DNA from: Bacteriovoracia bacterium
GTDB taxonomy: Bacteria > Bdellovibrionota > Bacteriovoracia > Bacteriovoracales > Bacteriovoracaceae
Assembly (NCBI GenBank): GCA_030431635.1
Contig: JAUIIL010000009.1
Location: 1-64,000, forward strand
Length of the DNA: 64,000 nucleotides
Reading direction: 5' to 3'
Below, in pieces: positions 13,632 to 31,379 of this stretch (positions are counted from its first letter, which is position 1; each line of letters opens with the position of its first letter). Both the position numbers and the translations under genes were made by a program. The notes under the pieces are model-generated. The model was given only the letters and a program-made list of their open reading frames with translations. It had not been told where the DNA came from and did no database searches.

Positions 13632-13642
13632 GGAGTTTTTGT

Positions 13643-14287: not shown

Positions 14288-14288
14288 T

Positions 14289-15542
14289 ATGAAAAAACTA
14301 ATATTATTATTATTCTTTATTCTAATTAATCAAATTGTAGTGGCACAAGATACGGTTATATCTTTAGATCAGGTTGCTCAGAAGGTTAAGGAAACGAATT
14401 ATTCTGTTTTAGAAAATGCTCAAAGAGTATATCAGGCCAAAGAAACAATAAACTTTAGTAAAAGAAATTTATTACCTAGACTTAATTTTTGGAACATTTT
14501 GAAACTTCCCTTTGATTGGGCATCTGCTATAGATATTGTCCAAGACTTAGCTCCCTTTTTAGTTCCAAATAACTGGTTTAGGGTTTCAGAAAGTAAACTG
14601 TTTTACTTAGCGCAAAAAGAGCAATATAGGGCATTATGGGCGAATGAAGTAATGACCTCTAAGCTTTTATATCTCAACACACTACGAGATATTGATTTTT
14701 TGAGTTTATTAGAAAATCAAAGTCGTCAATTAAAAGAGCTTATTGATATTGTTGAGACAAGAGCTGTTTTTGGTGAAGTTCCTCCCCAAGTTTTAAAATT
14801 TTTGAAAATTAGAAAACTGGAAGTACAAGAGGATATTCGATCCCTTGAAACTCTTGTATTTGAAGAGACTAAAGCTCTTACTCTTTTAATGGGCCTACCT
14901 CAAGAAACAAAGCTTAGATTACAGAGTATTCAACTACCTAATGTGGAAGATTTGTCTGCAATATCTTTCGACACATTTATTTTTAGGGCCATAGATAACG
15001 CTCCTGAGATAAACCAGTACATATATGTCAAGGAAGCTCTTAAATATGTTAAAAAGGAAGCATACTTCTCATTTCTTGGCTCATCAACAACATCGAGAGG
15101 AATCTCTAGTGGTGTTTTCAACAATATTCCCATTCAGGATGGGCTTGGATTTGGTTTAGGTAGTTCTATACGAATTTCTAAGAGTGAAGGTCAGATTATT
15201 GATATTAACAAACAAGCAACTACAGAAGTAATAAAGAAAAGCCTTTATGTCTTAGTTAATAATTTTAACTCTTATATTGAAAATATTGATAATCAAAACG
15301 AAAGATTTAAGCTCGCAGAAGAAAACTATGAAGTTGTTAAAACTCAGTTAATCCTCGGCATGAGTCTTGATCCTATAGAAATACTCGAAAGCATTCAAAA
15401 CCTTTTTGATGTTTCAATTTCACTCACAAACTACAAATATGAAGTAGTCAATACGATGGAAAAAATCAAAAGAAGTATTTTCAATGAAGATTATTCGAAA
15501 AAAGAAGGAAGGCTTGAAACTCTCTTGGAAGGAGTAAATTAA
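14289..15542 (+). CDS. Second TolC-like outer-membrane protein
   Basis: A 417-residue exported protein (signal peptide ending near VVAQ) with the long amphipathic helices of the outer-membrane efflux (OEP) family; paired segments around residues 110-190 and 310-400 are consistent with two TolC repeats. It shares little obvious sequence with the first TolC-like protein of this operon. Its end overlaps the next ATG by one base. Either the two form mixed channels or one has a structural role; neither can be decided from sequence. Confidence 0.7.
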   Translation: MKKLILLLFFILINQIVVAQDTVISLDQVAQKVKETNYSVLENAQRVYQAKETINFSKRNLLPRLNFWNILKLPFDWASAIDIVQDLAPFLVPNNWFRVSESKLFYLAQKEQYRALWANEVMTSKLLYLNTLRDIDFLSLLENQSRQLKELIDIVETRAVFGEVPPQVLKFLKIRKLEVQEDIRSLETLVFEETKALTLLMGLPQETKLRLQSIQLPNVEDLSAISFDTFIFRAIDNAPEINQYIYVKEALKYVKKEAYFSFLGSSTTSRGISSGVFNNIPIQDGLGFGLGSSIRISKSEGQIIDINKQATTEVIKKSLYVLVNNFNSYIENIDNQNERFKLAEENYEVVKTQLILGMSLDPIEILESIQNLFDVSISLTNYKYEVVNTMEKIKRSIFNEDYSKKEGRLETLLEGVN

Positions 15543-16015
15543 TGAAAAAGATATTATTAATAGTTAGTTTTATGATTTTATCATCTTGTAAATATGATGG
15601 GCCATTTTCTAGGGTTAAGAACCTTAAAGAAGGTAAGGAAAAAGTTGAGGTGATTGTTAATGATGAATTAACATCTGAAAATCAAGCATTACTCAGAGAC
15701 TATTTTGGGCAAATTAAGAATGTTATTTATGAAATAAAAAATAATTCTAAAATTCAAAAATATATTCACAAGAAATTTAGCAAATTTTTTAAAAGCACTA
15801 TTTGTAATGAAATTCTTCTGGATGAAGTTAACTACCAAACAATTATGGAAAAGTGTCAAGTTAGTGGCTTTTATATTTGTTCAGAGGAAGTCCGTGAATA
15901 CAAAGCATTACTAGCTGTGTCTAAAAAGATTCTTTCGGAGTCAGAATTTAGCAAGGTTATAGAAGAAGAAAAATGCAAAGAAAAATTAACGAATCTAGGA
16001 GTAATAAATGAATAA
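15542..16015 (+). CDS. Small lipoprotein in metal RND operon
   Basis: A 157-residue protein with a clear lipobox (LSSC, Cys16) after a short hydrophobic stretch. The rest is charged and helical with four further cysteines (TICNE, EKCQ, YICSE, EEKCKE), suggesting disulfides or metal ligands. Family unknown. Overlaps its neighbours on both sides (1 base and 8 bases), so it is firmly part of the operon. Confidence 0.72.
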   Translation: MKKILLIVSFMILSSCKYDGPFSRVKNLKEGKEKVEVIVNDELTSENQALLRDYFGQIKNVIYEIKNNSKIQKYIHKKFSKFFKSTICNEILLDEVNYQTIMEKCQVSGFYICSEEVREYKALLAVSKKILSESEFSKVIEEEKCKEKLTNLGVINE

Positions 16016-16565
16016 GAAGTTATTAATGGTATTGATTGTTTTGCTTACATTAAATTTTCAAGCCTTTGGAAATGAAAACTCTTCAACCCATCAACATAAT
16101 GATGAAGAACACTCTGAAAATGATGGCCACAATCATAAAAAAAAGAAGTCTCAATCTGAAGATGAACATAAAGATGGAGATGAAGAGGAACATGGGCATG
16201 GCGTTGGAGGAAAAGCAGTTGGAGAAGGAAAGGCCATCGTAGAGATAAGTGAAGAAAAAGGATTTAAACTCTCCAAAGAAGCAATTAAAACACTCGAGCT
16301 AAAATTACTTAATGTTGATAGTGACGAATTCTTAATTGAAAAAACGACTCTAGTTACTTCAAAAAAACTTAAAGGTGTTTACCGCTTCAGAGGTGGTTTT
16401 TTTAAGCTTCTTCCTGTAGAGCTAAAAAAAGAAGTTGATGGGAAATATCTTGTAAAAGTGAAAGGAGTTGATTTTGGAGATCAAATAGTTATTAACGGAG
16501 TTGGACTACTTAGAGTTGCTGATGTGTATTCAACAGATAAGGCAGAGTACTCTCACTCTCACTAG
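16008..16565 (+). CDS. Mini CzcB-like adaptor with His-rich N-terminus
   Basis: A 185-residue exported protein. After the signal peptide comes a His/Asp/Glu-rich linker (about residues 24-65), then VEISEEKGFKLSKEAIKTLELK and a closing section with FFKLLPVEL and VNGVGLLRV-like wording. These two parts match the first and last pieces of HME-type periplasmic adaptors (membrane-proximal domain), but the lipoyl, hairpin and most of the beta-barrel are missing; full adaptors have about 350-500 residues. It directly precedes the CzcA-like pump, so it probably serves as a reduced adaptor or metal chaperone. The assignment is partly inference. Confidence 0.65.
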   Translation: MNKKLLMVLIVLLTLNFQAFGNENSSTHQHNDEEHSENDGHNHKKKKSQSEDEHKDGDEEEHGHGVGGKAVGEGKAIVEISEEKGFKLSKEAIKTLELKLLNVDSDEFLIEKTTLVTSKKLKGVYRFRGGFFKLLPVELKKEVDGKYLVKVKGVDFGDQIVINGVGLLRVADVYSTDKAEYSHSH

Positions 16566-16576
16566 GATGTATAATA

Positions 16577-19500
16577 ATGATAAATAAAATTATTGAGTTT
16601 TCAGTTGGTAATAGAATGTTTGTCTTTATGGCAACAATATTACTGCTGATATTTGGTTATCGCTCATTTCAAACATTATCAATTGATGCTGTCCCTGATA
16701 TTACAAATACTCAGGTACAAATCAATACTTCAGTTAAGGGTCTTGTACCTGAAGAGATTGAGCGAATGGTAACTTTCCCCATTGAATACTCAATGAATGG
16801 TATTCCTGGGGTTGAAACAATTCGTTCTATATCCAGATTTGGAATTTCACAGGTAACGGTTATTTTTAAAGAAGACACCCCGATATTAACGGCAAGACAG
16901 CTTGTAAGTGAAAAATTACAAAACATTGAATTGCCATCTGGAATAACACCAGAGATGGGGCCAATAAGTACAGGACTTGGAGAGATTTTTCATTATTCAA
17001 TTTCTGCTAAAAATCCTAAGTCTGATCCAGAGGAAAGATTGAAAGAGCTAATGGAATTACGCTCTCTTCAAGATTGGTTCATTAAGCCAAGGCTTCTGAC
17101 GGTTAAAGGTGTTACAGAAGTTAATACTATCGGAGGTTATGAGAAGCAATTCTTTATACAGCCTGACATTGAACTTCTGGCCAAATATGGTCTTCATTTT
17201 GATGATATTGAAGTTGCGATTGAAAGTACAAACTTAAATGTTGGTGGAGGCTACATACAGCAATCTGGTGAGCAACTACTTGTTAGAGGTGTCGGTCTAT
17301 TAAAAACATTTAAAGATATAGAAGATGTCGTCGTAAAAAGACTCTCGGACTACCAAGTCATCAAAATCAAGGATATTGCCAAGGTTAAATTTGATAAACA
17401 AATTAGAACAGGAGCTGCTACCGTAAATGGTGAAGAATCAATTATTGGAACGGCCTTCATGCTCCTTGGTGAGAATAGTCGTACTGTATCAACTGATATT
17501 TTTGATAAGATAACTCAAATTAAAAAGGATTTACCTGACTGGGTAGAGCTTGATGTTCTTTATAATCGCTCCAATATGGTTAATGCAACACTTGGTACAG
17601 TGGAACACAATCTCTTTATGGGGGCCTTTTTAGTCATCTTGTTTCTTTTGATGCTTGTTGGAAATCTCAGGGCAGCTATCATAACTTCTATTATCATTCC
17701 TATTTCTCTTCTTATCACTTTCATTTTAATGAAATGGCAAAATGTTTCGGGAAATTTAATGAGTTTAGGTGCACTTGACTTTGGAATCATCGTAGATGGA
17801 GCTGTTATTGTTATTGAGAACTGTGTCCATAAACTCCAAAAGGAAGGTACTCGTTTAGGGCGAGAACTGACGAGAGATGAAGTTAAAAAATATGTAACTG
17901 ACGCTGCTATTGAAATACGCTCTGCTGCTGGTTTTGGTGAGTTGATTGTTATTATAGTGTTTGTTCCATTATTTGCTTTAACAGGAGTTGAAGGAAAGAT
18001 GTTTGGCCCAATGGCCCAAACATTTATAATGGCATTATGTTCAGCACTAGTGCTTTCGTTTACACTTGTTCCAGCTCTGGCTGCCACTTTTTTAAGTGGA
18101 AAAACAAGAGATTCTAAACCATACCTTATGAGAACGGCCGAGAATGCTTTTTCTCCCGCTTTGAAAAAAGCACTCGATTTTAAGAAGATTGTTCTAGGAA
18201 TTGGGATTGTCTCTATTTTTTCTGGTGTTATTCTATTTTCAAGAATGGGTTCTGAATTTATCCCTCAGCTTGATGAGGGAGATTTTGCTCTTCAATTTAT
18301 TCGCCCAGCGAATATTAACACTGAAAATTCAGTAAAACTTCAAATGCTTTCAGAAAGACTTATCAAAGAATTTCCACAAGTCGAAAACGTATTTGCAAGA
18401 ACTGGTGCTGCTGAAGTTGCGACTGATCCTATGGGAGTTAATATCTCTGATTCATACGTTATGTTGAAAGACAGAGATAAATGGCCAGAAGATAGTAAAA
18501 TCACAAATAAAGACGAATTGATTGAAGCCGTTAAAGCAAAAATAGAGCTTCATGTTCCGGGCCAAGTCTTAATGGTATCTCAGCCAGTAGAGCTAAGATT
18601 TAATGAGTTATTAGAAGGAACAAGGGCCGATGTTTCCGCCAAAATCTTTGGAGAGGATTTAGATAAACTCATTGCTTACTCAAAACAAGTTGCTGAAATA
18701 GTCGGTGAAATTCCTGATTCTGGTGAAGCTGAGTCTGAGTCAAAAGGTAAATCACCAATGATTCAGTACACACCAAAGATGAACGAGCTTGCCCAATTAG
18801 GTGTTACCGCTAGACCTGTACTTGATGCTATTAGTACCGCGGTTGGTGGAAAAGAGATTGGACACGTTTACGAAGGGGTACGAAAGTTCCCGATTGTGAC
18901 AAGACTTTCAGAGGCTCAGAGAAAAGATGTTTTTACCATTAGTCAGCTTCCAGTGGGAATTTCAGAGGGGTTTACTGTACCTATTTCACAAATAGCAGAT
19001 ATAGACTTTGTAGAAACATTCACTGCTGTGGCCCGTGAAAAATCACAAAGAAGAATTGCTGTCTTAATTAATCCTAAAACAAGAGATATTGAGACATTTG
19101 TAAATAAGGCCAAGTCACTTGTTGAAGAAAAGATTAAGTTTCCAGAAGGCTATTATATTGAATGGGGAGGAAGTTTTAAAAATCTTCAAAGTGCTAAAGA
19201 GCGTCTTTCGGTACTTGTTCCACTTGCGATGTTAATTATCATTGGAATGCTCTACGCTGCATTTAAAAACTTCGCCCAAGTTATACTGATTTTTGCCTGT
19301 GCACCAATGGCCTTAATTGGCGGTGTATTGTCTCTAAACATCGCTGGAATGCCATTTAGTATCTCTGCTGGTGTTGGTTTTATAGCCTTGTCTGGTATTA
19401 GTATTCTCAATGGAGTCGTCTTAGTTACTTACTTTAACCGATTGATTGAGGATGGGAAAACACCTGATGAAGTTGTGCAAGAAGGAGCAATGACCAGATT

Positions 19501-19708
19501 ACGACCAGTTTTAATGACAGCATTAACAGATATTTTTGGATTTCTGCCAATGATGTTTTCTAGTGGACTTGGTGCTGAAGTACAAAAGCCATTAGCAACG
19601 GTTGTTGTTGGAGGGATTTTTTCAGCAACTCTTTTAACATTAATTGTTATTCCGAGTTTATACAGACTATTTATTAAATATATGCAACCAAACCTGAATG
19701 AAATTTAG
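16577..19708 (+). CDS. czcA: CzcA-like HME-RND divalent metal efflux pump
   Basis: Full-length inner-membrane RND pump, 1043 residues with twelve predicted membrane spans. The HME signature GALDFGIIVDGAVIVIEN (about residues 394-411) supplies the acidic proton-relay residues of CzcA-type pumps. At the place where CusA has its copper methionine (YMP) this protein has ALQFIRPA, and there is no methionine triad, so Zn2+/Co2+/Cd2+/Ni2+ is more likely than copper. Last gene of the seven-gene operon; a GC-rich hairpin follows. Confidence 0.92.
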   Translation: MINKIIEFSVGNRMFVFMATILLLIFGYRSFQTLSIDAVPDITNTQVQINTSVKGLVPEEIERMVTFPIEYSMNGIPGVETIRSISRFGISQVTVIFKEDTPILTARQLVSEKLQNIELPSGITPEMGPISTGLGEIFHYSISAKNPKSDPEERLKELMELRSLQDWFIKPRLLTVKGVTEVNTIGGYEKQFFIQPDIELLAKYGLHFDDIEVAIESTNLNVGGGYIQQSGEQLLVRGVGLLKTFKDIEDVVVKRLSDYQVIKIKDIAKVKFDKQIRTGAATVNGEESIIGTAFMLLGENSRTVSTDIFDKITQIKKDLPDWVELDVLYNRSNMVNATLGTVEHNLFMGAFLVILFLLMLVGNLRAAIITSIIIPISLLITFILMKWQNVSGNLMSLGALDFGIIVDGAVIVIENCVHKLQKEGTRLGRELTRDEVKKYVTDAAIEIRSAAGFGELIVIIVFVPLFALTGVEGKMFGPMAQTFIMALCSALVLSFTLVPALAATFLSGKTRDSKPYLMRTAENAFSPALKKALDFKKIVLGIGIVSIFSGVILFSRMGSEFIPQLDEGDFALQFIRPANINTENSVKLQMLSERLIKEFPQVENVFARTGAAEVATDPMGVNISDSYVMLKDRDKWPEDSKITNKDELIEAVKAKIELHVPGQVLMVSQPVELRFNELLEGTRADVSAKIFGEDLDKLIAYSKQVAEIVGEIPDSGEAESESKGKSPMIQYTPKMNELAQLGVTARPVLDAISTAVGGKEIGHVYEGVRKFPIVTRLSEAQRKDVFTISQLPVGISEGFTVPISQIADIDFVETFTAVAREKSQRRIAVLINPKTRDIETFVNKAKSLVEEKIKFPEGYYIEWGGSFKNLQSAKERLSVLVPLAMLIIIGMLYAAFKNFAQVILIFACAPMALIGGVLSLNIAGMPFSISAGVGFIALSGISILNGVVLVTYFNRLIEDGKTPDEVVQEGAMTRLRPVLMTALTDIFGFLPMMFSSGLGAEVQKPLATVVVGGIFSATLLTLIVIPSLYRLFIKYMQPNLNEI

Positions 19709-20534: not shown

Positions 20535-20595
20535 TAAAGTAATAACGAAAACTTTTCAAACGTCCTTTAGAGTTACCAACTAAAGATTCTTAATT
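20535..20595. repeat. Partial copy D of the dispersed repeat
   Basis: The stretch CGAAAAC.TT.CAAACG.CCT.TAG followed by CCAAC.AA.GATT matches the middle of copy A (4750-4793) with scattered differences. It lies between the small secreted gene and the convergent kinase-fold gene. Confidence 0.4.
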
Positions 20596-21471
20596 ACCAT
20601 TTATTCGTCTTTCAAAGTTAATATCAAACTCAATATCTTTGAAGAGTTCATCTATTTCAGGGATTTGTTTCCTCCAGTTAATGTACTCCGTCCGTTTTGT
20701 GAAAACAGTTTGAGTACTTTCGCTTGGAGCTTTTTTCAAAGAACCATCAATATTTCGAATATCAATGTACATCCAACCATGTTCAGTGGAGAAAACTAAA
20801 TTTTCATCATGAAAATCATCCAGTGACTCAAGAGGAATTGATTTTTCTCCAAACTCTTTAAGTTTATCTTTAAGAAGTTTTTGAACATCAGGAGGAATAG
20901 CAGTCGGGTCTTTTTGCAGAATCTCCATCCAGTCTTTAAATGTTTTGATTTTTAAATCTACTTTATCAGGAGATTTAAAGTGAATACTTAATTTTATATT
21001 TTCAACGATAACAATATCATTCGCTTTATCTACTTCATAAAGATGGGGTAGAGGAAACTCTGTTGCTTCTTGAAGTAGATTGTAACCAGATTCGAAAGCG
21101 TGGGCTTCGGTTAAAAGTTCAGACTGGCCATGTTCAAAACTCACTCTTAAAGCTTTTCCATCACCAATGTCAAAAATAGCATTAACTTTGCCACGCCCTA
21201 GGATTCCTTTAACTTTAATTTCTCTACCACTTGGAAACTTAAGAATCGCTTCACTAAGCTCGCCTGTTTCAAGTTTCTTATAAATTTCTTCTAATACTGC
21301 TTTTCTGTCTCCAACTTTAAGCGTGTAAGTTTTAGAAACGAAAGTTTCATCAGTTATATTTTTTAATTTTGAAAGCTCGAACTCCCTTTTTTTTTCTAAA
21401 CAAGGTAAGGCCTCAACTCGGGCATGGGCTGTGTGAAAGAGAGTCAATATGGTAACTATTTGCAAAAACAC
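20590..21471 (-). CDS. Exported protein-kinase-fold protein (APH-like motifs)
   Basis: A 293-residue protein, GTG start, with a signal peptide ending near TAHA (residue 17). The middle shows an ATP-grasp-like N-lobe (LGRGKVNAIFDIG...KALRVSF, with the likely ATP lysine) and a catalytic segment D219-F-H-D-E-N224 equivalent to the D-L-H-P-G-N loop of aminoglycoside phosphotransferases, followed by MYIDIRN (DFG-equivalent Asp). Kinases with signal peptides are rare in bacteria because ATP is absent from the periplasm, so it may act after export, for instance in a prey cell. Substrate unknown. Confidence 0.7.
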   Translation of the reverse strand: MFLQIVTILTLFHTAHARVEALPCLEKKREFELSKLKNITDETFVSKTYTLKVGDRKAVLEEIYKKLETGELSEAILKFPSGREIKVKGILGRGKVNAIFDIGDGKALRVSFEHGQSELLTEAHAFESGYNLLQEATEFPLPHLYEVDKANDIVIVENIKLSIHFKSPDKVDLKIKTFKDWMEILQKDPTAIPPDVQKLLKDKLKEFGEKSIPLESLDDFHDENLVFSTEHGWMYIDIRNIDGSLKKAPSESTQTVFTKRTEYINWRKQIPEIDELFKDIEFDINFERRINGN

Positions 21472-21669
21472 AGTTCTTTATCGTAAAATCAATACATAAA
21501 CTTAATTGTCCGTAAAGTACCTGACTTCTTAACTTTGCCAAATAGTAACGGTAAGCTATGGGTAGATAATTTGTTACTTTATATTTCTTTTGAAAGTCAA
21601 AAAAGTTCAAGTCTGTACTCTTTTAATATTTTTGTATTCAGCATTCGCCTAATGAGCTAGGCTTTAACA

Positions 21670-22845
21670 ATGATAGATATAGAAAAGGTGAGAAAAGAAA
21701 CTCCTGGATGCAAGAACAGGATTCATTTCAACAATGCGGGATCTTCTTTTTCCCCTCAAGCTGTTATTGATGCTGTTAAAAATCATCTTAATTTAGAGCA
21801 GGAGATGGGTGGTTATGAAGCTGCCAACAAAGAGTTTATCAAAATTGAGAAATTTTATTTAAATACAGCAGAGTTAATAGGCTGTAAGTCAAATGAAGTT
21901 GCCTTTGTTGAAAATGCAACGAGGGCATGGGACATGATTTTTTATAGTTTACCTTTTAAAAGAGGTGACAAAATTGTCACTGATGTGGCTGAGTATGCGA
22001 GTAACTACATTGCTATGTTACAACTTTCAAAAAAGCTAGGTTTGGAAATAGAGGTTATTCCCGACGACAAAGATGGTCAGGTGGATTTAGATAAATTAAA
22101 AAAATCAATGGATGGAAAAGTAAAGCTTGTTGCTCTTACTCATATTCCAACAAACAACGGACTTATTAACCCAGCTAAGAAAGTGGGAGAAATTGCTAAA
22201 GAAGCAAACGCTTACTATTTGTTAGATGCTTGTCAGTCTCTTGGACAAGTAAACGTTAAGGTTGATGATATCGGTTGTGACTTTCTTTGCGGGACAGGAA
22301 GAAAATATTTACGAGGACCTAGAGGTACAGGACTACTCTATGTGCGTGGATCCCTCATCGAAAAAATTGAGCCTGTTTTCTTAGACTTACATGCTGCTAC
22401 GTGGACTTCTATGCACGGCTTTAAAATAAGAAATGATGCGAGAAGATTTGAAAACTGGGAGTGTCATGTAGCAGGGAAGTTAGGGCTAGCTACGGCTATT
22501 GGGTATTGTAATCAATTGGGAATTGAGAATATAGAGAAAAGAGTTCAAGAACTGGCCAAAAGTTTAAGACAATCTTTAGCAAAAATTCCTAGCATTACAG
22601 TACTAGATAAAGGTTGTGAAAAGAGTGGTTTAGTGACTTTTACAGCTCCTTTTAATATAGAAAATTTACAAAAAGAGTTAGAGCTTTCAGGCATAAATAC
22701 GTCCGTTTCTTACCTCGAATATGCACGATTAGATTTTGAACCTAAGAACTTAAAGATGGTTTTAAGAGCATCAGTGCATTACTACAACACGCTGGATGAG
22801 ATTGAAAAACTCTGTTCAAAAGTATCTGAAATCCTAAGAAGATAG
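21670..22845 (+). CDS. Class V (NifS-like) PLP aminotransferase
   Basis: A 391-residue cytosolic PLP enzyme of the cysteine-desulfurase/isopenicillin N epimerase-like group. Landmarks: HFNNAGSS at the N-terminus, LLDACQSLGQ with the cofactor aspartate, and GTGRKYLRGPRGTG with the Schiff-base lysine. No cysteine-desulfurase catalytic loop was identified, so it is more likely an EgtE-like lyase or an aminotransferase of unknown substrate than IscS. It stands alone, divergent from the kinase-fold gene. Confidence 0.82.
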   Translation: MIDIEKVRKETPGCKNRIHFNNAGSSFSPQAVIDAVKNHLNLEQEMGGYEAANKEFIKIEKFYLNTAELIGCKSNEVAFVENATRAWDMIFYSLPFKRGDKIVTDVAEYASNYIAMLQLSKKLGLEIEVIPDDKDGQVDLDKLKKSMDGKVKLVALTHIPTNNGLINPAKKVGEIAKEANAYYLLDACQSLGQVNVKVDDIGCDFLCGTGRKYLRGPRGTGLLYVRGSLIEKIEPVFLDLHAATWTSMHGFKIRNDARRFENWECHVAGKLGLATAIGYCNQLGIENIEKRVQELAKSLRQSLAKIPSITVLDKGCEKSGLVTFTAPFNIENLQKELELSGINTSVSYLEYARLDFEPKNLKMVLRASVHYYNTLDEIEKLCSKVSEILRR

Positions 22846-22862
22846 TTAGAGAATTTTTCATA

Positions 22863-23042
22863 CCCTGTAATAAGAAAGTCAGTTCGAAAGCCTCCATAAA
22901 CCCTTGGGCCAGTTCATGGTTTGGGAGAATAAGTTCGAGTCTTTCTAAAGAGGAAGCCTTAAAATTAGTGAAACTTGCAGCGATGGATCTTTTTATTTAT
23001 AAAAAAATATCATTATTTTTGAAGGTTATCAATCTATACTAG
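22863..23042 (+). pseudogene. Possible gene remnant
   Basis: An open frame without a proper start runs through this gap and reads like protein (INPWASSWFGR, then SKEEALKLVKLAAMDLF) before stopping inside the convergent kinase gene's end. It may be the tail of a decayed gene. Weak evidence: an AT-rich frame of this length can be open by chance. Confidence 0.25.
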
Positions 23043-23874
23043 AAAGCAATAGGTCCCTTTTTAAAAGAATACTTTGAATTTCCTCTTCGGATAATAAGTT
23101 ATCTAACACAGATAAGTTTTCTCTATTTAGACCCTTAAGTTGTTCCAAAACATCAGTATTTAATTCAATTTTATCAGCTCTTGGTCTTGTTATACGACCA
23201 CCTATATCTGGATTAAAAGAGAGCCCGTTATCAATTGCAACAAGATCGTTATTTGAATCAATTAAAACATTTCTTCCATGTCTATCGTGGATATTACCTA
23301 AAAAATCTAAAATAAAGATATGATTTAATTGTTCTTTTCTCCCTTTATTAGCTTTAGAAATGGCCCTTGCAAAAGGATTGGAATCAACAAAAGGATTAAT
23401 AACTCCAAGGAGATCGGTAAAGTGATTAGAGAAATTCTTTTTTCTATCAACCCAGGTCTGAACTGAAACTTTTGTTTTAACTCCGTTTATCTCTATTGTT
23501 CTTAAAAATGTAGGTGGGACGACATCAAATCCTAATAATTTTGATAACTCATATGCAGCGACTTCATATTCCGGTTTTAAAGAAAAGAGGCGATCAATTT
23601 CTCCTAAAGTTCCTATGTAACTACCTTCTTCTTTAATTATTACTTTCTGGCCATTTTCAAGTATTCCAATATGTTTTTTTCCTCCAAAAGTAAGAGCTCC
23701 TCTTGCGATTGGAAAACGCTCAATTTTAACGATTTTAGAATTTCTTAGTTCAGAATCACTACGAGTTAATTCCGACAACGTCTTTCTTAATTTATCGACA
23801 CAGCTTCCCTGTGCAGAGAACACAAGAAATAAGAAGGTGAATGAATATAAAATCTTATTGTTAACCAAAGTCAT
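23029..23874 (-). CDS. Exported PI3/4-kinase- or Fam20-like kinase-fold protein
   Basis: A 281-residue protein with a signal peptide ending near SAQG (residue 23). The catalytic region LGNIHDRHGRNVLI followed by LVAIDNGLSF is the pattern of PI3/PI4-kinase-like and Fam20-like kinases (D-x-H/R-x-x-N plus I-D-N-G). An upstream KHIGILENGQKVIIKEEG supplies the likely ATP-binding lysine. GGAGAAAG precedes the ATG. It is the second exported kinase-fold gene within 3 kb, but from a different kinase subfamily. Extracellular or prey-directed action is an inference. Confidence 0.72.
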   Translation of the reverse strand: MTLVNNKILYSFTFLFLVFSAQGSCVDKLRKTLSELTRSDSELRNSKIVKIERFPIARGALTFGGKKHIGILENGQKVIIKEEGSYIGTLGEIDRLFSLKPEYEVAAYELSKLLGFDVVPPTFLRTIEINGVKTKVSVQTWVDRKKNFSNHFTDLLGVINPFVDSNPFARAISKANKGRKEQLNHIFILDFLGNIHDRHGRNVLIDSNNDLVAIDNGLSFNPDIGGRITRPRADKIELNTDVLEQLKGLNRENLSVLDNLLSEEEIQSILLKRDLLLSSID

Positions 23875-24106: not shown

Positions 24107-26341
24107 TTAATCCCAGCTTGTCATTTTTTGGTTCCTATAGAAAAAAACTCTGACTCTTCCTTTTCTCTTAAGGGGGATTTTTACCGTTGACCCACGGATA
24201 TTTAAAAAATTAATTCTTTTTATCCCTTTATTCATGTCTGAATCCAGAGTAATACTTTTGATATAACTATAATCATCCGAGTAAAGAATTGAGGAAGCAA
24301 AAAGGCTCTCTCCTTGAATATTAACCACCCCACGAGAAGGATATTGTTTTTCTAACTCTTCTTTCTTTTTTTGCTCTTCAATTCTTTTTAGTTCTTCTTC
24401 TTTTTTCTCTTCTTCAGCTTTTAAACGTTGAGCTTGCGCTTGTTTTTTCTCTTCTTCGATACAATCAAGAAAGCCTAAAATGGCACACCCAAAAACACGC
24501 GTCTTCTGGGGGATTATTAATTTATGGCTAGTGACACCATCAACGGTATTTTTTTCAAAAGTATAAGCAGTGTCCATTGTAGAGTAGTCTGATTTGTATT
24601 GAAACCCACGAACTGTATTGATTCGATTATTTAAAAAACTAATACTAAGTGATGAATATTCGTTTTCGTATTTTTTATAGAACATGAGATGTTTTTTGTA
24701 CTTTGAATTTGAATCGATGAGACGAAGTTCATGGTACTTGTCACGAGTATGCTCTTCAATTAAAACAGAATCTATCGTGTCATCTCCATTGAACTTAATA
24801 GATAAATCACTAAAGTTACTAAGAGTCGTCTCATAGTTCTCTTTAGTGATGAAAGTTATTTTATCCCGTCCTTTTTTTGAGGAGAGGCCACTAATGAGAT
24901 TATTATAAAAGTAGAGGTAATGATCCCCGAAATCCTGACTATCTCCTGCTGGAATAATAATTTTATTTTCTTTTGTTTTAAAAAATATTGTGGCCCCTTT
25001 AGGAAATGAAATCTTCGTCAGATCTCTTGATTCTTCGTAAAGCACTTGAATACTTTGAGCTGTAATCTCAATAGGTTGGTTGTTGGAGTTGAAAGTAAGT
25101 ACCGCAGGTTCACTCACATCACTTGAGATAATGTACTGATAATCATTTTCTTTAATAATGTTCTTAAAGTGAGAAATAGTATAGTTGATAGGTCCTATAT
25201 CAACAGATACATTATGGTTAGAACTGATTTCATTAGTCCTCCAATCTGAACCATCAAAATAAATCTTTGTTCCAATTGAAGACTTAATAAAACCGATAGG
25301 CCCAAGAATATCGGCTTCTTCCTGAAGAATATAGATATTTTGATTGTCATAATAAGGCTTAACCAGAAGGCCTTTGTAATGATAACTATTAGAAGGGTAA
25401 GCGAGATTATATTCTTTCATAATAAGAAAATACTCATCACTACTATAGTAATCGACAAACTCAGACATACTCAGATAAGTAAAAAAGCGAATACCATCAG
25501 AACCTCTGGCCGCATTATATTTAATATCCTCTTCAAGATAGAGTTCATGTAAGAGCGTTCCTACTTTATCTTGATAAGAAAAAACCTCAGAGTTATAAAT
25601 TTGACCACGAATAAGAACTTTAGGATCTCCCGGGAAAACTTCTGCTTTCGTTTGTTGATAGGCCAGGGGTACCTCGTAACAATTCTCATCTAAATAATCT
25701 CGTAGATTATAATCTGAGTCTTTAGCATCTGGAATTCTTCCTCTAACAACACTATAGAGAGGGTAGAGTTTGCTATTCTTTCCTTTTAATCTTTCAATGA
25801 GTCTGTTGGCCCTTGAAGGATCTTTCGTTTTAAGTCTATTTAGGACAGCGAGAACACCTTCTTCAACTAGCTCATCTCTTGCCGCTTCATCAGGCGCAAG
25901 TTGATAGTAAGCTTTCATCACTTTCTCTTCTTGTTCTTTATTATCAAAAATTTGAATTGAAAATTGATTGTTTTTCACTCTCTTTTCGTAGAGGTCAAGT
26001 AGTTGGGCTGAGACAAGTTTTGCTTCTTCCCCAAGAGGATATTTTATCTTACTTAAAACTTTAACTTCTTCCTTCTCATTTGCTTCACCTTCAATTTTAG
26101 ACTTTACAATATCAACTTTAACAATTGTATATTTCCCACTTTTATAATCTTCTTTCTCCTTCAAAGAAACCACGACGCTTTCAATGACTTCCTCATTACT
26201 AAGCTTCTCATCTTTTTCAACGGTCACTTCTTCAAAAAGAGGCTTGTCATAACAAGCGATCGCATCGGCACCGTTACCGCCTTGGCTTGCGAAGGTGCTT
26301 ATCGAACTCAATAGAGTTAAAGCTAAAATAAGTTTATTCAT
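24107..26341 (-). CDS. Large exported protein paired with a TIGR02147 regulator
   Basis: About 744 residues, signal peptide ending at STFA, then the GGNGADAIAC motif that recurs in many Bdellovibrio-group exported proteins. The middle has HELYLEED (His265, Glu266), resembling a degenerate zinc-peptidase helix, and the C-terminal third has a long Glu/Lys/Gln coiled coil (about residues 635-670) before a short beta-rich tail. The ATG at 26341 is preferred (AAGGAG upstream); an in-frame ATG 36 bases further upstream would overlap more of the regulator. Start and regulator stop overlap as ATGA, so the two are co-translated. Function unknown; secreted effector or surface protein is inferred. Confidence 0.78.
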   Translation of the reverse strand: MNKLILALTLLSSISTFASQGGNGADAIACYDKPLFEEVTVEKDEKLSNEEVIESVVVSLKEKEDYKSGKYTIVKVDIVKSKIEGEANEKEEVKVLSKIKYPLGEEAKLVSAQLLDLYEKRVKNNQFSIQIFDNKEQEEKVMKAYYQLAPDEAARDELVEEGVLAVLNRLKTKDPSRANRLIERLKGKNSKLYPLYSVVRGRIPDAKDSDYNLRDYLDENCYEVPLAYQQTKAEVFPGDPKVLIRGQIYNSEVFSYQDKVGTLLHELYLEEDIKYNAARGSDGIRFFTYLSMSEFVDYYSSDEYFLIMKEYNLAYPSNSYHYKGLLVKPYYDNQNIYILQEEADILGPIGFIKSSIGTKIYFDGSDWRTNEISSNHNVSVDIGPINYTISHFKNIIKENDYQYIISSDVSEPAVLTFNSNNQPIEITAQSIQVLYEESRDLTKISFPKGATIFFKTKENKIIIPAGDSQDFGDHYLYFYNNLISGLSSKKGRDKITFITKENYETTLSNFSDLSIKFNGDDTIDSVLIEEHTRDKYHELRLIDSNSKYKKHLMFYKKYENEYSSLSISFLNNRINTVRGFQYKSDYSTMDTAYTFEKNTVDGVTSHKLIIPQKTRVFGCAILGFLDCIEEEKKQAQAQRLKAEEEKKEEELKRIEEQKKKEELEKQYPSRGVVNIQGESLFASSILYSDDYSYIKSITLDSDMNKGIKRINFLNIRGSTVKIPLKRKGRVRVFFYRNQKMTSWD

Positions 26342-27084
26342 TGATTTCTCCTTGATAATGGAAAGAGGGCAACACATATTTGGTAAATTGAGTTCTTTTT
26401 TTTCTTTTGAGCATTTCTTAATTCAATTGAGTCATTAATAAACTCATTAATTTTTTTCTTAAAAAGAGGAAGATCCTCATCATTAATGGCAATGGTGAGA
26501 CTTGAGTTGGATCTTTCATTAAAGTCAACCCGATCGACTGCTTCTTGGGCCATGGACAATAACTGCTTCTGCATCATTCTACGAGCAGTTGTTGTAGAGC
26601 TGTAATTAAACCACTCATTGTTGGGGCTTAAAATTTGATAGCCTTCATCACATGATTCGATCAGTTTAAGTCTTTCAAGCCTTTCAAGGGCCAATTTTAC
26701 TTCAAAGCGCTTAAGCCCTAAGGTTTTGGCCATCCAAGAAGGATCGCTTTGAAAATCATCGAGTTTAAACAGTTCCAAAATAGCGAAGTGGTACCAATCA
26801 CTCATTATAATAAAGACATCATCTTCAATGCGATTGTGTTCTGTATCTAGTTTAAAACTCTCTGCCATTCTTTGTTTTGCCTCTGAAGTACTTAGGCCCA
26901 AAGAGTGAGAGAGTTTCATGGCCATTTTTGAAGAGAGGGTTCTTTGTCCTTTAAAGAGTTTGCAAAGAAGAGAGGGATCAACATCCAAGGATTTCGCATA
27001 CGATCTGAGGCTATAGTTTTTATTGCTCTTAACTCTTCTTAAGAATTCTTCTTGAACAAGATTTTTAATCACTTCAGTTTCCAT
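26338..27084 (-). CDS. TIGR02147/DUF4423-type transcription regulator
   Basis: About 248 residues from ATG 27084 (a GTG at 27132 would add 16 residues but overlaps the palindrome upstream). N-terminal helix-turn-helix (YSLRSYAKSLDVDPSLLCKLFKG, about residues 25-47), then the characteristic SDWYHFAILELFKL block near residue 95 and a winged-helix second half with ERLERLKLIE. The family is abundant in Bdellovibrionota and Fibrobacterota. It is translationally coupled to the downstream exported protein and preceded by a strong palindrome, suggesting autoregulation. Confidence 0.85.
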   Translation of the reverse strand: METEVIKNLVQEEFLRRVKSNKNYSLRSYAKSLDVDPSLLCKLFKGQRTLSSKMAMKLSHSLGLSTSEAKQRMAESFKLDTEHNRIEDDVFIIMSDWYHFAILELFKLDDFQSDPSWMAKTLGLKRFEVKLALERLERLKLIESCDEGYQILSPNNEWFNYSSTTTARRMMQKQLLSMAQEAVDRVDFNERSNSSLTIAINDEDLPLFKKKINEFINDSIELRNAQKKKKNSIYQICVALFPLSRRNQ

Positions 27085-27131
27085 ATAGGAGCTTATACTT
27101 GTCGCGAATAGTCGTTTCAACAGTTTTTCCA

Positions 27132-27160
27132 CATAGTGTAGACAGCTTGTCTACACTATG
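27132..27160. promoter_or_regulatory. Perfect 13+13 palindrome, likely operator
   Basis: CATAGTGTAGACA (27132-27144) and its exact reverse complement TGTCTACACTATG (27148-27160) around a 3-base centre. It lies between the minus-strand regulator gene and the plus-strand exported gene at 27305, 48 bases before the preferred regulator start. No T run follows in either direction, so an operator (for the TIGR02147 protein) is more likely than a terminator. Confidence 0.6.
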
Positions 27161-27304: not shown

Positions 27305-28006
27305 TTGAAGTTGTTGTTAAGTTTTTGCTTATTATTCTGGCAATTGAGTAGTTATTCAGAAGAGTGCTCGGAGCATTTTATTGAGAGAGCAAACGCGAAA
27401 ATACTTCATCGATTAAAAAAACAAAACCCAGAATTTTTAGAACAATTAAGGAAAGTTGAATATAGAGATGTCTGGGTTTCAACGGCCCCAGAGGATCCTT
27501 TTCTTCAAAAATATGCTCGTCAGTTCAAGAGTACTGGGGATGAGATGATTGATGTGAGAAGCCCTGAATTTGTGACTGTTTATCGTTCTTTGAAGGATAT
27601 AGAGGATATTCATAAACTCGATCTGAATAGAAGCTATGTTGACGATTCGTCATCTTCAGCAAGTGGATATGGTGGAGACTATGATTACGATCATGTCAGT
27701 GATGTTGATAGCTGGGCCCTACATTACACTTATAGAGATGGAAAAGATATTTTCATTGAATACAATATACCGGCGCTATTTTTAAGTCCCGATCGCCGCA
27801 TTTCAAGATCTGAGCCTTACTATATTATTGACCCAGATAAGCTAGGGGATTATGGAATCAAGTCGGTTGCTATGTTCGTAAGTAGAATAGCGAGGATAAC
27901 TGAGAGAAGTAAAAGATATCTCACAGTAAGAGATCCCTCGGTTGAATGGATTGAAGAAGAAGTTGTAGAAAAAATTATTCAAAACTCTTCTGTGATTACT
28001 TATTAG
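27305..28006 (+). CDS. Exported protein, possibly ADP-ribosyltransferase-like
   Basis: A 233-residue protein, TTG start with AGGAG nine bases upstream, signal peptide ending near SYSEE. The order VYRSL (about residue 98), DSWALHYTY (about residue 138) and RSEPYYIIDP (about residue 173) resembles the R, S and E elements of some mono-ADP-ribosyltransferases. A Ser/Gly/Tyr-rich stretch (SSSSASGYGG) lies between. The similarity is by pattern only; no family is certain. Confidence 0.6.
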   Translation: MKLLLSFCLLFWQLSSYSEECSEHFIERANAKILHRLKKQNPEFLEQLRKVEYRDVWVSTAPEDPFLQKYARQFKSTGDEMIDVRSPEFVTVYRSLKDIEDIHKLDLNRSYVDDSSSSASGYGGDYDYDHVSDVDSWALHYTYRDGKDIFIEYNIPALFLSPDRRISRSEPYYIIDPDKLGDYGIKSVAMFVSRIARITERSKRYLTVRDPSVEWIEEEVVEKIIQNSSVITY

Positions 28007-28099: not shown

Positions 28100-28789
28100 A
28101 TGAAAGGTATATTTTTTCTCATTATTGCTATTTCTTTTTGCTTCAATGAAGCTCAGGCGAAGAACAAGAATCCCTATAAAATAAGAGCACTGAGAAAGAA
28201 CTGCTTACAAGCGTTTAGCAACATGGGCTTTAAGGATAACCTGACTTATATTTATGAAAAAGATGAACTCATCTCAATACTCAAAGAAGTGAGAGAGAAA
28301 ATGAAGGGCATCGCCTATGATAAAACAGCTTTTGATTCGCAAGATTATCGTCTAGCAATGCAAAACCCTCAGTGCAATCCTTTGCGAGGGCATTGTGGAG
28401 CTGCTGTTTACACGATTCAATTTCTCTTTGGTGGAGAGGCGAAACTTCTTTTTTATCAGAGTGAGAATGGAAAAGAGTTTTGGCATATGTATAATAAAAA
28501 TATTCCTTACCGTAATGAGGGAGATTCTAATACTAAAATTAAATATCTTGATGTTGATCTCACGAAGGGACAACTTGATAATGCTGATGAGGCAACTCTT
28601 ACTCCTATGGGAGATGTGATCGTTTATGATGGGTTAGAGTATAAGCTAGTTGAGCAATGGGATTACAAATGGGAAGAAGATAAGATAGGGCCTTTAAGAC
28701 CTCAAATTATCACTTTTTTCACTCGTTTTTTAACAGATGGTAAGGCGACTTTCCCTGCTCCAAAAGATAATAGCTCTCACTTTGATTAA
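28100..28789 (+). CDS. Exported YunG-like/transglutaminase-type protein
   Basis: A 229-residue protein with a signal peptide ending at EAQA. The mature part has GHCGAAVYTIQFLFGG, EFWHMYN and LDVDLTKGQ, an ordered Cys, His, Asp triad typical of transglutaminase/YunG-like papain-fold proteins. AAGGA precedes the ATG. Such an enzyme could crosslink, hydrolyse or process proteins outside the cell; the specific substrate cannot be read. Assignment by motif order, moderate certainty. Confidence 0.65.
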   Translation: MKGIFFLIIAISFCFNEAQAKNKNPYKIRALRKNCLQAFSNMGFKDNLTYIYEKDELISILKEVREKMKGIAYDKTAFDSQDYRLAMQNPQCNPLRGHCGAAVYTIQFLFGGEAKLLFYQSENGKEFWHMYNKNIPYRNEGDSNTKIKYLDVDLTKGQLDNADEATLTPMGDVIVYDGLEYKLVEQWDYKWEEDKIGPLRPQIITFFTRFLTDGKATFPAPKDNSSHFD

Positions 28790-28834: not shown

Positions 28835-28885
28835 ATTCTTGTCATGAGATTAAGTTCATAAGCACTGGTCACGGTGCTTTGCGCT

Positions 28886-29731
28886 ATGTTAAAACCCTTT
28901 CAAATGACGAAGAAGACAGATTACAACCATTTATTTGCGCAAAGCAACTCAGTTTCTGAGTTTTTGAAGGAAATATATTTAGAGAAAAAAGACAAGAATC
29001 CGGCCTACAGCATTTCGGCCATGGCCCGGGATCTGGAAATCAGTCAGTCGCTTTTGAGTTTGGTTCTTTCAGGAAAAAGAAACCTGAGTTCAAAAAAGTT
29101 AATTCAGGTTTCAAATAAACTCAAATTTAATACTCAGCAGACAGAAAAACTTTTTAATATTTCAAGATATGAAAATATCACGAACCCAGAAAAAAAAGAA
29201 GCTCTCTATTTAGAAGTTGATAAATTTAAATACATTTATAATTGGTATCATTTGGCCATTCTTGATCTCGTAACTCTTAAGAGTTTTCGCCCTCATTATG
29301 CATGGATTGCGAAAGCTCTTGGTATTGAACAAATTGAAGTTCAAGATGCGGTGGAAAGACTGCAGAGATTAGGTCTACTTGAGATTAATGAAAAAAATGA
29401 ATGGATTAACACCAATATGAGGTTAATCATTCCTACTAAGAACTCAAAAGCAAGTATTCGCAATTTTCATCTTCAAATGATGAAGAAGGCCATGGATGAG
29501 CTCTCTAAAACTTCTCAAAAAGATTTTTTAAGAAGAGAGATTTCAGGTATTACGCTAACTCTTGCTCCTGAAAAACTAGAAATAGCTAAAAAGAGAATAC
29601 GTCAATTTAAACAAGAAATGTATGACTTGCTTGATGACGAAGATTGTAAAGAAATCTACCAGCTTAATATACAATTTTTCCCGCTAACCTCGTTAGAAAA
29701 TATGGAGAACACAAATGAAAACATTCATTAA
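28886..29731 (+). CDS. Second TIGR02147/DUF4423-type regulator
   Basis: About 281 residues. The N-terminal HTH reads SISAMARDLEISQSLLSLVLSG, followed by the family's NWYHLAILDL block and a winged-helix VERLQRLGLLEI. It is recognisably related to the regulator at 26338-27084. No good ribosome site marks the start: GTG 28874, ATG 28886 and ATG 28904 are all possible. Its last 17 bases overlap the next gene, which encodes an exported HEXXH-ankyrin protein, repeating the regulator/exported-protein pairing seen on the other strand. Confidence 0.85.
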   Translation: MLKPFQMTKKTDYNHLFAQSNSVSEFLKEIYLEKKDKNPAYSISAMARDLEISQSLLSLVLSGKRNLSSKKLIQVSNKLKFNTQQTEKLFNISRYENITNPEKKEALYLEVDKFKYIYNWYHLAILDLVTLKSFRPHYAWIAKALGIEQIEVQDAVERLQRLGLLEINEKNEWINTNMRLIIPTKNSKASIRNFHLQMMKKAMDELSKTSQKDFLRREISGITLTLAPEKLEIAKKRIRQFKQEMYDLLDDEDCKEIYQLNIQFFPLTSLENMENTNENIH

Positions 29732-31379
29732 AAGCCTTTTCTTAGTTGCACTTATTACGAACGCTTACTCACAAAAGAAGCCAACTCAATCCTTTTTCGG
29801 TGGAGATGTTGGTGGAGGTGGTGATGTTGTGAAAATAAATGGTAAGTGGGTTATGCGCGATAGAGTTGATGATACGACGACTCTCTGCTATCACGGCTCA
29901 AAAAATATAGAAAATTTTCCTAAATCTTTTGATAAAGTTCTTGATTCACTTGATTCAGTAAACTGGTATATAGCAAGAATATACCGACAGGAAATTCAGA
30001 AGCTTTTCTTTTGTTATGGGAACGCTCCTTTACTTGAGTACGTGACTGAAAACTATAACCCCATTTTTGTTCCTTTTACTTGGAGGAACTACACCAGGAA
30101 AGTGGCCACAAGAGTAAAAAGTACAGTTTATGTTGATGGAAGTATCTATTATGGGACGGAAGATGAGGAAGGAATGGATGATCAGGCCAGAGGGGACTTT
30201 TTCCTTCATGAAATCTCTCACTCTTTTATGAACCCCTACGATCCGATGTATCAGACTCACTTGATGTCTTTTATTAAAGTTCTCATTAATCATGTTGAAA
30301 ATCCTTATCCAGCTGATTTTTTTAATCTCCAAGTAGAAATGAATCAAATGGCCTTACCTGCTAATTACGAGCTTTTTAACTTATTTAAAGACGAGCTTAA
30401 ATATGCTTTCAATTTAGAAAACCCTGTCAATTTAAGAGTGAATGAGGCCTTGAAGGTAAAGAAAATTATTCCCTACTTAACTCAAGCCGATCAAGAAATA
30501 ATTCGTCAGTTAATTGGTTTTCACTCAAATCTGCCTTTAAAAATTAAAGAAGGTGATACAGAAAGAGTGAGAAAGTTATTAGCTGAAGGGGCTTCACCAA
30601 ACTCTTTTCATGAAGGAAAACCTCTGCTTGTTTATGCGATGGAGCAAAAAGAGCAAGAAATTTTTCAAATGTTATTTCTTCACAAAAATTTCAAAATAAG
30701 TTCTCAAATAATGGTAGCGCTTAAAAAAGAAGAAAATAAAGAGTACCTCGAACTTATTCTCTCACATACTAAACCTGAAATTCTTTCTCAGAAAGGTTTC
30801 TTAGAAAACGCTTTAGAGACTCAAGACAAAATTTTTGTTGAAAAAATCCTGACTAATAAGTTTATCCAAGAAGCTTATGGGAATGAGAGAATTGTAAAAA
30901 ACATTAGAAATCTATTTAAAACTGAAGAAGAGTTATTAGATTTTGTAGATAGAAGTGAACTACCAAATGAGTATATTGAATCCTTTTATGATTCAGCTCT
31001 AGAAAAAGATGAGTTTGTAACTATCTATGGACTTCTTCAAAGTCAGTTTAAAAAATCACTGATTAACCGTAAAAATTCAGTTAATGAAACAATCCTCTAT
31101 ACGGCTGTAAGAAAGGATGATGCTGAACTATTGAAGTTTCTTTTAAAAGCTGAAGGGCTTGATCTTAATCAAACTTTTGAAGCTGGGAATACAATTGCCC
31201 ACGTGGTTGTTTATTATGCTCGCTATGAACTTTTACTTCTACTTCTTCAGACTGGAAAGGTTGATTTCTCAGCTGTTAATGAAGCAGGAGTGAGTCCTCT
31301 TGAACTTGCGACTAAACATAAAAAAGAAAATGATAAGGCGATGGAAATTTATAAATTGTTAAAGAAGGTAGGTAATTAA
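29715..31379 (+). CDS. Exported HEXXH metallopeptidase-like protein with ankyrin repeats
   Basis: A 554-residue protein: signal peptide ending at NAYS, a GGDVGGGGDVV motif, then FFLHEISHSF (His165, Glu166, His169), a zinc-metallopeptidase HEXXH. From about residue 270 the sequence turns into ankyrin repeats (DTERVRKLLAEGASPN, ETILYTAVRKDDAELLKFLL, NTIAHVVVYYARYELLLLLL). GGAG lies 7 bases before the ATG. Ankyrin repeats bind protein surfaces, so this may be a targeted secreted protease, e.g. against prey. Third zinc ligand not identified; activity is inferred. Confidence 0.72.
   Translation: MKTFIKSLFLVALITNAYSQKKPTQSFFGGDVGGGGDVVKINGKWVMRDRVDDTTTLCYHGSKNIENFPKSFDKVLDSLDSVNWYIARIYRQEIQKLFFCYGNAPLLEYVTENYNPIFVPFTWRNYTRKVATRVKSTVYVDGSIYYGTEDEEGMDDQARGDFFLHEISHSFMNPYDPMYQTHLMSFIKVLINHVENPYPADFFNLQVEMNQMALPANYELFNLFKDELKYAFNLENPVNLRVNEALKVKKIIPYLTQADQEIIRQLIGFHSNLPLKIKEGDTERVRKLLAEGASPNSFHEGKPLLVYAMEQKEQEIFQMLFLHKNFKISSQIMVALKKEENKEYLELILSHTKPEILSQKGFLENALETQDKIFVEKILTNKFIQEAYGNERIVKNIRNLFKTEEELLDFVDRSELPNEYIESFYDSALEKDEFVTIYGLLQSQFKKSLINRKNSVNETILYTAVRKDDAELLKFLLKAEGLDLNQTFEAGNTIAHVVVYYARYELLLLLLQTGKVDFSAVNEAGVSPLELATKHKKENDKAMEIYKLLKKVGN

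What the first reader, a model, noticed from the sequence alone, without database searches (positions are those of the whole stretch)
20590..23874. Two exported kinase-fold proteins of different subfamilies
Both have signal peptides and recognisable kinase active-site patterns (D-F-H-D-E-N; H-D-R-H-G-R-N with I-D-N-G). Bacterial periplasm lacks ATP, so activity would be expected after delivery into another cell. In a predator this points to prey-directed effectors.
Basis: partly seen in the sequence, partly recalled or inferred. Interest (0 to 1): 0.65.

Follow-up and report, generated by a model that had tools for sequence, protein, structure and literature searches.

The report
Two exported kinases of predatory bacteria
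Two neighbouring genes of a bacterium from the predatory Bdellovibrio phylum encode proteins built like kinases (enzymes that attach phosphate from ATP) yet carrying tags for export from the cell; each belongs to a largely unstudied family found across that phylum, so they may be enzymes used on prey, although that last step is untested.

Summary
P1 (window 20590-21471, minus) and P2 (23029-23874, minus) are real genes with N-terminal signal peptides and complete kinase active-site motifs, from different kinase families. P2 is clear: PI3/PI4-kinase Pfam match above cut-off; its family profile hits FAM20C (2.8e-15), FAM20B and PI4KII in the PDB; its model resembles PI4KII, CtkA, HipA and Fam20. 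P1 matches no curated family, but its 51-member family aligns end to end with aminoglycoside-phosphotransferase-like kinases (hhalign 96%, E 4.8e-9; 31 shuffled or reversed controls at about 0.1%). Signal-peptide-like starts occur in 48 of 50 P1 relatives and 29 of 32 bacterial P2 relatives, so export is a family trait. The families occur in 49 and 76 of 330 sampled genomes of the phylum. In phage contigs the P2-type kinase is fused to head proteins (MuF), where delivered toxins sit. The two genes are not an operon. Not shown: catalysis, secretion beyond the periplasm, any substrate, any role in predation. Prey-directed action is the most likely reading but remains inference. P1's family mostly has Gln where kinases have the metal-binding Asn; P1 itself keeps Asn.

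The parts
20590..21471 (-). P1: exported APH-like kinase-fold protein, 293 aa, GTG start
   Evidence: ORF; family profile vs APH hhalign 96%, E 4.8e-9; Foldseek top 50 nearly all kinase-fold entries, best E 1.3e-3; not in Pfam or NCBIfam
21421..21471 (-). P1 predicted signal peptide, residues 1-17 (cleavage after AHA); no positive charge in n-region
   Evidence: sequence; SP-like starts in 48 of 50 relatives
21184..21201 (-). P1 glycine-rich loop L91-G-R-G-K-V96
   Evidence: G92 82% and G94 92% conserved in the family
21145..21147 (-). P1 Arg109, in place of the ATP-binding Lys
   Evidence: Arg in 47 and Lys in 4 of 51 relatives
20800..20817 (-). P1 catalytic loop D219-F-H-D-E-N224
   Evidence: Asp 98% conserved; position 224 is Gln in 45, Asn in 5 and Lys in 1 of 51
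20761..20763 (-). P1 second metal-binding Asp (D237, DFG-equivalent)
   Evidence: 98% conserved; aligns with the APH LDWE Asp
23029..23874 (-). P2: exported FAM20/PI4KII-like kinase, 281 aa
   Evidence: PF00454 2e-7; TIGR03843 6e-15, below cut-off; family profile hits FAM20C 2.8e-15, FAM20B 1.3e-14, PI4KII about 1e-10 in the PDB; model Z 13.6 to PI4KIIbeta
23803..23874 (-). P2 predicted signal peptide, residues 1-24 (AQG|SC)
   Evidence: sequence; 29 of 32 bacterial relatives have an SP-like start
23632..23634 (-). P2 ATP-binding Lys81
   Evidence: 95% conserved
23563..23565 (-). P2 helix-C Glu104
   Evidence: 93% Glu, the rest Asp
23269..23289 (-). P2 catalytic loop H196-D-R-H-G-R-N202
   Evidence: D197 98%, N202 98% conserved
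23224..23235 (-). P2 metal-binding motif I214-D-N-G217
   Evidence: I214 and D215 invariant in 43 aligned domains
21670..22845 (+). class-V aminotransferase (SufS/EgtE-like), opposite strand; separates the two kinase genes, not part of the finding
   Evidence: PF00266 6.6e-65; no link to the kinases seen

Best explanation
P1 and P2 are two exported kinases from different branches of the kinase superfamily, each from a family widespread in the predator phylum Bdellovibrionota. Shown by sequence: kinase-type active sites, membership of the kinase superfamily (strong for P2, profile-level for P1) and N-terminal Sec-type signal peptides as a family trait. Inferred: they idle in the ATP-free periplasm, leave the cell (probably through the type II secretion system) into the prey or the bdelloplast, and phosphorylate prey molecules with prey ATP. 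P2 most likely phosphorylates protein Ser/Thr, as FAM20C, CtkA and HipA do, or less likely a lipid or sugar; P1, being APH-like, more likely a small molecule or a protein hydroxyl.
For: Kinase families: P2; P1. Active-site conservation. The second exported P1-type protein of the same genome (G000:C2, locus L107) has the textbook pattern DLHAEN...LVLDFG. Export. Type II secretin in the same genome. Sec-dependent signal peptides send a reporter out of Bdellovibrio cells (PMC12622784). The clade is used in proteins that look delivered elsewhere: fused to MuF or minor-capsid head proteins in phage contigs, once next to an ADP-ribosyltransferase-like domain; MuF proteins carry toxin domains (PMC5576092). 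HMG-CoA reductase is present, though 284 of 330 genomes of the phylum have it.
Against: No proof of catalysis, secretion or prey contact. P1's own signal peptide lacks positive charge and its start is weak. P1's family mostly has Gln instead of the metal-binding Asn and Arg instead of Lys, so many relatives could be pseudokinases. Both structure models are of low confidence (mean pLDDT 48 and 59). The families are patchy (15% and 23% of genomes), so they are not core predation genes. No kinase was named in the main text of the Bdellovibrio papers looked at for secreted or lineage-specific proteins.
Confidence: 0.48

Rival explanations
1. Exported pseudokinases: the fold is kept as a binding or scaffold module in the periplasm or on the surface, without phosphotransfer.
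For: The P1 family has Gln at the metal-binding position in 45 of 51 and Arg for Lys in 47 of 51; one relative (L120) has lost both Arg109 and the second Asp; no ATP is expected in the periplasm.
Against: Both catalytic Asp residues are 98% conserved in the P1 family; the full set K-E-D-N-D is kept in P2 and in its family at 93-100%; the window P1 and its own-genome paralogue keep Asn.
Confidence: 0.22
2. Extracytoplasmic kinases acting on the predator's own envelope or secreted proteins, like CotH on spore coats or FAM20C in the Golgi, with ATP coming from lysed cells or the bdelloplast.
For: P2 is closest to FAM20 by family profile; CotH also appears among fold neighbours (Z 9.2).
Against: No known ATP supply in the periplasm; no neighbouring gene that could be a substrate was identified.
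Confidence: 0.15
3. Effectors aimed at something other than bacterial prey, such as protists or competing bacteria, or polymorphic-toxin cassettes shared with phages.
For: MuF-kinase and minor-capsid-kinase fusions; a 1639-aa protein with two kinase domains in a relative; CtkA-like fold.
Against: P1 and P2 are small, single-domain, carry Sec-type signal peptides and have no delivery module or obvious immunity gene.
Confidence: 0.1
4. Ordinary cytoplasmic small-molecule kinases whose hydrophobic N-terminus is not a signal peptide.
For: P1 start: GTG, weak ribosome-binding site, no positive charge; the SP rule also fires on 36% of control ORFs.
Against: 48 of 50 P1 relatives and 29 of 32 bacterial P2 relatives have a hydrophobic SP-like N-terminus although the rest has diverged to 20-30% identity.
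Confidence: 0.05

Closest known systems
FAM20 secretory-pathway kinases (FAM20B/C)
   Same: P2 family profile hits FAM20C at 2.8e-15 and FAM20B at 1.3e-14; DRH and [IL]DN motifs; made with a signal peptide
   Different: P2 keeps the metal-binding Asn where the FAM20-type sequence has Glu (DRHHYE); a single Cys, so no disulfide; much shorter
Type II phosphatidylinositol 4-kinases
   Same: best structural match, Z 13.6, 4.1 A over 200 residues; Pfam PF00454 above cut-off
   Different: P2 is an exported bacterial protein; lipid substrate unknown
Helicobacter pylori CtkA
   Same: fold match Z 13.2, 3.3 A over 200 residues; a bacterial kinase acting on host cells
   Different: CtkA is linked to a type IV secretion system (PMC5536186); P2 has a Sec-type signal peptide
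HipA toxins
   Same: same kinase branch, Z about 12
   Different: HipA is cytoplasmic with a HipB antitoxin; P2 has a signal peptide and no such partner next to it
Aminoglycoside phosphotransferase (APH) family PF01636
   Same: P1 family profile aligns over the whole kinase core (96%, E 4.8e-9)
   Different: no P1 member reaches the Pfam cut-off; exported; DxHxxQ in most relatives; invariant C-terminal Arg (42 of 42)
MuF polymorphic toxins of temperate phages
   Same: in phage contigs the P2-type kinase sits at the C-terminus of MuF or minor-capsid proteins
   Different: P2 has no MuF domain and is a bacterial-genome gene with a signal peptide

Membership tests
PI3/PI4-kinase superfamily (Pfam PF00454), P2 | score above the curated cut-off | tested here: met
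   31.7 bits against 27.1
PI3/PI4-kinase superfamily (Pfam PF00454), P2 | phosphorylates a phosphoinositide | not testable with these tools
   needs a biochemical assay
FAM20 kinases, P2 | Fam20C Pfam model above cut-off | tested here: not met
   17.5 bits against 26.8
FAM20 kinases, P2 | profile-level homology to solved FAM20 proteins | tested here: met
   FAM20C 2.8e-15, FAM20B 1.3e-14
FAM20 kinases, P2 | metal-binding Asn replaced by Glu | tested here: not met
   P2 has N202; the FAM20-type protein in the alignment has E; Asn is 98% conserved in the P2 family
FAM20 kinases, P2 | conserved disulfides | tested here: not met
   P2 has one Cys only (C25)
TIGR03843 / SCO1664 family, P2 | score above the curated cut-off | tested here: not met
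   55.3 bits against 172.4; homologous but not a member
HipA toxins, P2 | partner antitoxin gene (HipB-like HTH) directly next to it | tested here: not met
   the neighbours are an aminotransferase and an exported protein without an HTH match
MuF polymorphic toxins, P2 | N-terminal MuF domain | tested here: not met
   281 aa, kinase domain plus signal peptide only; the fusion was seen only in phage contigs
Protein-kinase-like superfamily, APH branch, P1 | profile-profile match over the kinase core | tested here: met
   hhalign 96.0% local, 97.0% global; reversed and 30 shuffled controls at about 0.1%
Protein-kinase-like superfamily, APH branch, P1 | catalytic Asp and second metal-binding Asp | tested here: met
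   D219 and D237, 50 of 51 each
Protein-kinase-like superfamily, APH branch, P1 | metal-binding Asn in the catalytic loop | tested here: inconclusive
   Asn in P1 and 4 relatives, Gln in 45 of 51
Pfam APH (PF01636), P1 | score above the curated cut-off | tested here: not met
   no hit for P1; one of 15 relatives at E 0.12
Kinase fold, P1 | confident predicted kinase fold | tested here: inconclusive
   mean pLDDT 48; much of the N-lobe 63-84; Foldseek top hits are kinase-fold entries but best E is 1.3e-3 and best Z 7.9
Sec-exported proteins, P1 and P2 | signal peptide | tested here: met
   family-level rule-based test; no trained predictor was available and P1's own peptide is weak
Prey-delivered predator effectors | found in prey or bdelloplast during predation | not testable with these tools
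   needs proteomics or imaging

The most novel reading that the evidence does not exclude
Predatory Bdellovibrionota carry a patchy, fast-diverging arsenal of at least two different families of secreted kinases that phosphorylate prey proteins or metabolites with the prey's own ATP, one of them a new kinase family (P1) that mostly uses Gln in place of the metal-binding Asn.
Probability: 0.33. Interest if true: 0.8.

Novelty: new variant of a known kind. Interest (0 to 1): 0.56.

Why it matters
How Bdellovibrio-like predators kill and process prey is mostly thought of in terms of hydrolases: proteases, nucleases and wall enzymes. Exported kinases would add phosphorylation of the prey as another way of acting, and would be a bacterial counterpart of the FAM20 enzymes of the animal Golgi. 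The Gln-for-Asn change in an otherwise conserved site is also a clean question for kinase enzymology.

Tried and rejected
(1) Single-sequence and plain-profile searches of the PDB and Pfam for P1 gave only chance hits; only the profile-profile comparison settled the superfamily. (2) Operon or two-gene system: rejected; a plus-strand gene lies between, no P1-type gene was found in the P2-type neighbourhoods fetched, and co-occurrence is weak (17 genomes with both, odds ratio 2.0, p 0.04, not corrected for relatedness). (3) Toxin-antitoxin (HipA-like) or defence: no HipB-like neighbour; no PADLOC hit. (4) Mobile origin: no match on plasmids (P1, P2) or in phage records (P2). (5) Mevalonate pathway as a predator marker to correlate with: useless here, 284 of 330 genomes have it. 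(6) P1 family tree: too many long branches to place the window protein. (7) Promoter scan: no more sites than shuffles. (8) The genome-collection scan with P2 alone found nothing, and the alignments of all relatives were too diverse for that tool. (10) VIA-align for P1: the rows are kinases but Z is below 8 on a low-confidence model, so it is given little weight. (11) Relatives from the genome search were not handed to structure prediction because its stated rule does not list them; the P1 model therefore rests on four sequences.
Full report
WHAT IS THERE. A class-V aminotransferase gene on the plus strand (21670-22845) separates them, so they are not one operon. P2 has a good ribosome-binding site. 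P1's start is weak, and an in-frame TAA just upstream means the protein cannot begin earlier. The window is the first 64 kb of contig 19 (169,863 bases) of a 3.3-Mb genome.

P2 IS A FAM20/PI4KII-LIKE KINASE. Pfam PI3_PI4_kinase 2e-7 (above cut-off), Fam20C 0.0035 (below cut-off); NCBIfam TIGR03843 6e-15 (below cut-off). A profile of ten relatives finds FAM20C (2.8e-15), FAM20B (1.3e-14), FAM20A and PI4KII (about 1e-10) in the PDB. Although the AlphaFold model is of modest confidence (pLDDT 59), the fold searches agree: PI4KIIbeta Z 13.6, H. pylori CtkA 13.2, HipT/HipA about 12, Fam20 12.3. Lys81, Glu104, Asp197, Asn202 and Asp215 are conserved at 93-100% over 43 aligned domains. It is not a FAM20 member in the strict sense: it keeps Asn where the FAM20-type protein aligned has Glu, and it has a single Cys.

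P1 IS AN APH-LIKE KINASE OF AN UNRECOGNISED FAMILY. No curated family matches P1 or its relatives above cut-off. A phylum-wide search found relatives at 20-30% identity, and a profile search raised this to 49 of 330 genomes. The profile of 51 members matches an alignment of 29 APH proteins at 96.0% (E 4.8e-9; global mode 97.0%); the forced full alignment runs through the Gly-rich loop, the Arg/Lys position, the catalytic loop (P1 DDFHDENLVF against APH NDFRFDNAVF) and the second Asp; the best-supported part is the N-lobe. The reversed profile and 30 column shuffles gave about 0.1%. The low-confidence model (pLDDT 48) still has a kinase-like order of strands and helices and retrieves mostly kinase-fold structures (PRPK, RIO, APH, MTR kinase), but below firm thresholds. 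Asp219 and Asp237 are conserved in 50 of 51; the ATP-binding Lys is Arg in 47 of 51; the metal-binding Asn is Gln in 45 of 51. The window protein, the second family member in the same genome (locus L107: DLHAEN...LVLDFG) and three others keep Asn. A C-terminal Arg (R288) is invariant in the 42 members aligned there; its role is unexplained.

EXPORT. With a simple rule (charge-free 10-residue hydrophobic stretch near the start, followed by a small-x-small site), 48 of 50 P1-family ORFs score, and 31 of 41 P2-family ORFs, which is 29 of 32 once the nine phage proteins are left out. The same rule scores 109 of 302 other ORFs from the same stretches. The individual peptide of P2 is typical; that of P1 lacks positive charge, as does that of the paralogue L107. 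No trained signal-peptide predictor was available. The genome has a type II secretion secretin (GspD), so a way out of the periplasm exists. In Bdellovibrio, Sec signal peptides send a reporter into the medium (PMC12622784).

WHERE THEY WOULD ACT. This part is inference. Kinases need ATP, which the periplasm is thought to lack (general knowledge). A predator living inside its prey has a possible supply: the prey's. Bdellovibrio is reported to take up intact nucleoside monophosphates (Ruby et al. 1985, seen only as a reference title in PMC7529429). The strongest indirect hint for delivery comes from elsewhere: in uncultured phage contigs the P2-type kinase is the C-terminal domain of MuF (1.2e-17) or phage minor capsid proteins (5.4e-97), once beside an ADP-ribosyltransferase-like domain. 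This is the place where MuF polymorphic toxins carry their toxin domain (PMC5576092; that paper's main text does not mention kinases). CtkA, a fold neighbour, acts on host cells after export (PMC5536186).

DISTRIBUTION. P1-type in 49 and P2-type in 76 of 330 sampled genomes, 17 with both. Both are patchy, and the P1 family is fast diverging (median end branch of the tree 1.16 changes per site), which fits accessory effectors better than housekeeping enzymes. P2-type kinases also occur in at least one genome without HMG-CoA reductase (G093), so they are not strictly tied to that loose predator marker. Genomes that look like Bdellovibrio carry the domain at the C-terminus of exported 735-769-aa proteins; the identity of these genomes is inferred from size and contig number only.

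LITERATURE. In the held library, the FAM20 review and structural papers do not discuss bacterial relatives, the Legionella pan-kinome places several effector kinases in the FAM20/CotH group (PMC9758233), and the main texts of the Bdellovibrio proteome and comparative-genomics papers looked at do not mention kinases. Supplementary tables and subscription papers were not searched, so 'undescribed' is a statement about this library only.

VERDICT. Observation confirmed. Prey-directed function: plausible, about one chance in two, untested.

Noticed in passing
L035, L037, L038, L040, L041, L042 (viral contigs): PI3/PI4-kinase-like domains fused to MuF-type or minor-capsid head proteins of uncultured phages, one of them (L037) together with an ADP-ribosyltransferase-exotoxin-like domain: they look like delivered kinase effectors.
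   Followed up: partly
L127:5529-10445 (minus): A 1639-aa protein of a same-family genome carries two P2-type kinase domains, each after a similar region with an HExxH stretch.
   Followed up: partly
L107:3012-3944 (minus), own genome contig C2: Second exported P1-type kinase of the same organism, with DLHAEN...DFG; next to it another exported-looking protein of unknown family (L107:4040-5056).
   Followed up: partly
L120 (G230:C85), two neighbouring P1-type genes: One of the two copies has lost Arg109 and the second Asp, so it looks like a pseudokinase beside an intact copy.
   Followed up: no
window 20608-20610 (P1 residue R288): An Arg invariant in all 42 P1-family members aligned there, outside the known kinase core; role unexplained.
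   Followed up: no
window 24107-26377 (minus): Large exported-looking protein (756 aa) without any significant family match, directly upstream of P2.
   Followed up: no
window 26338-27132 (minus) and 28874-29731 (plus): Two DUF4423 regulators flank two ORFs (27305-28006, 28100-28789) without family matches.
   Followed up: no
window 29715-31379 (plus): Ankyrin-repeat protein; an ankyrin protein serves self-protection in Bdellovibrio (PMC4686830).
   Followed up: no
window 12408-19708 (plus): Efflux cluster with an AcrB-family pump and two outer-membrane efflux proteins.
   Followed up: no
window 33646-35238 (minus): EptA/EptB-like phosphoethanolamine transferase.
   Followed up: no
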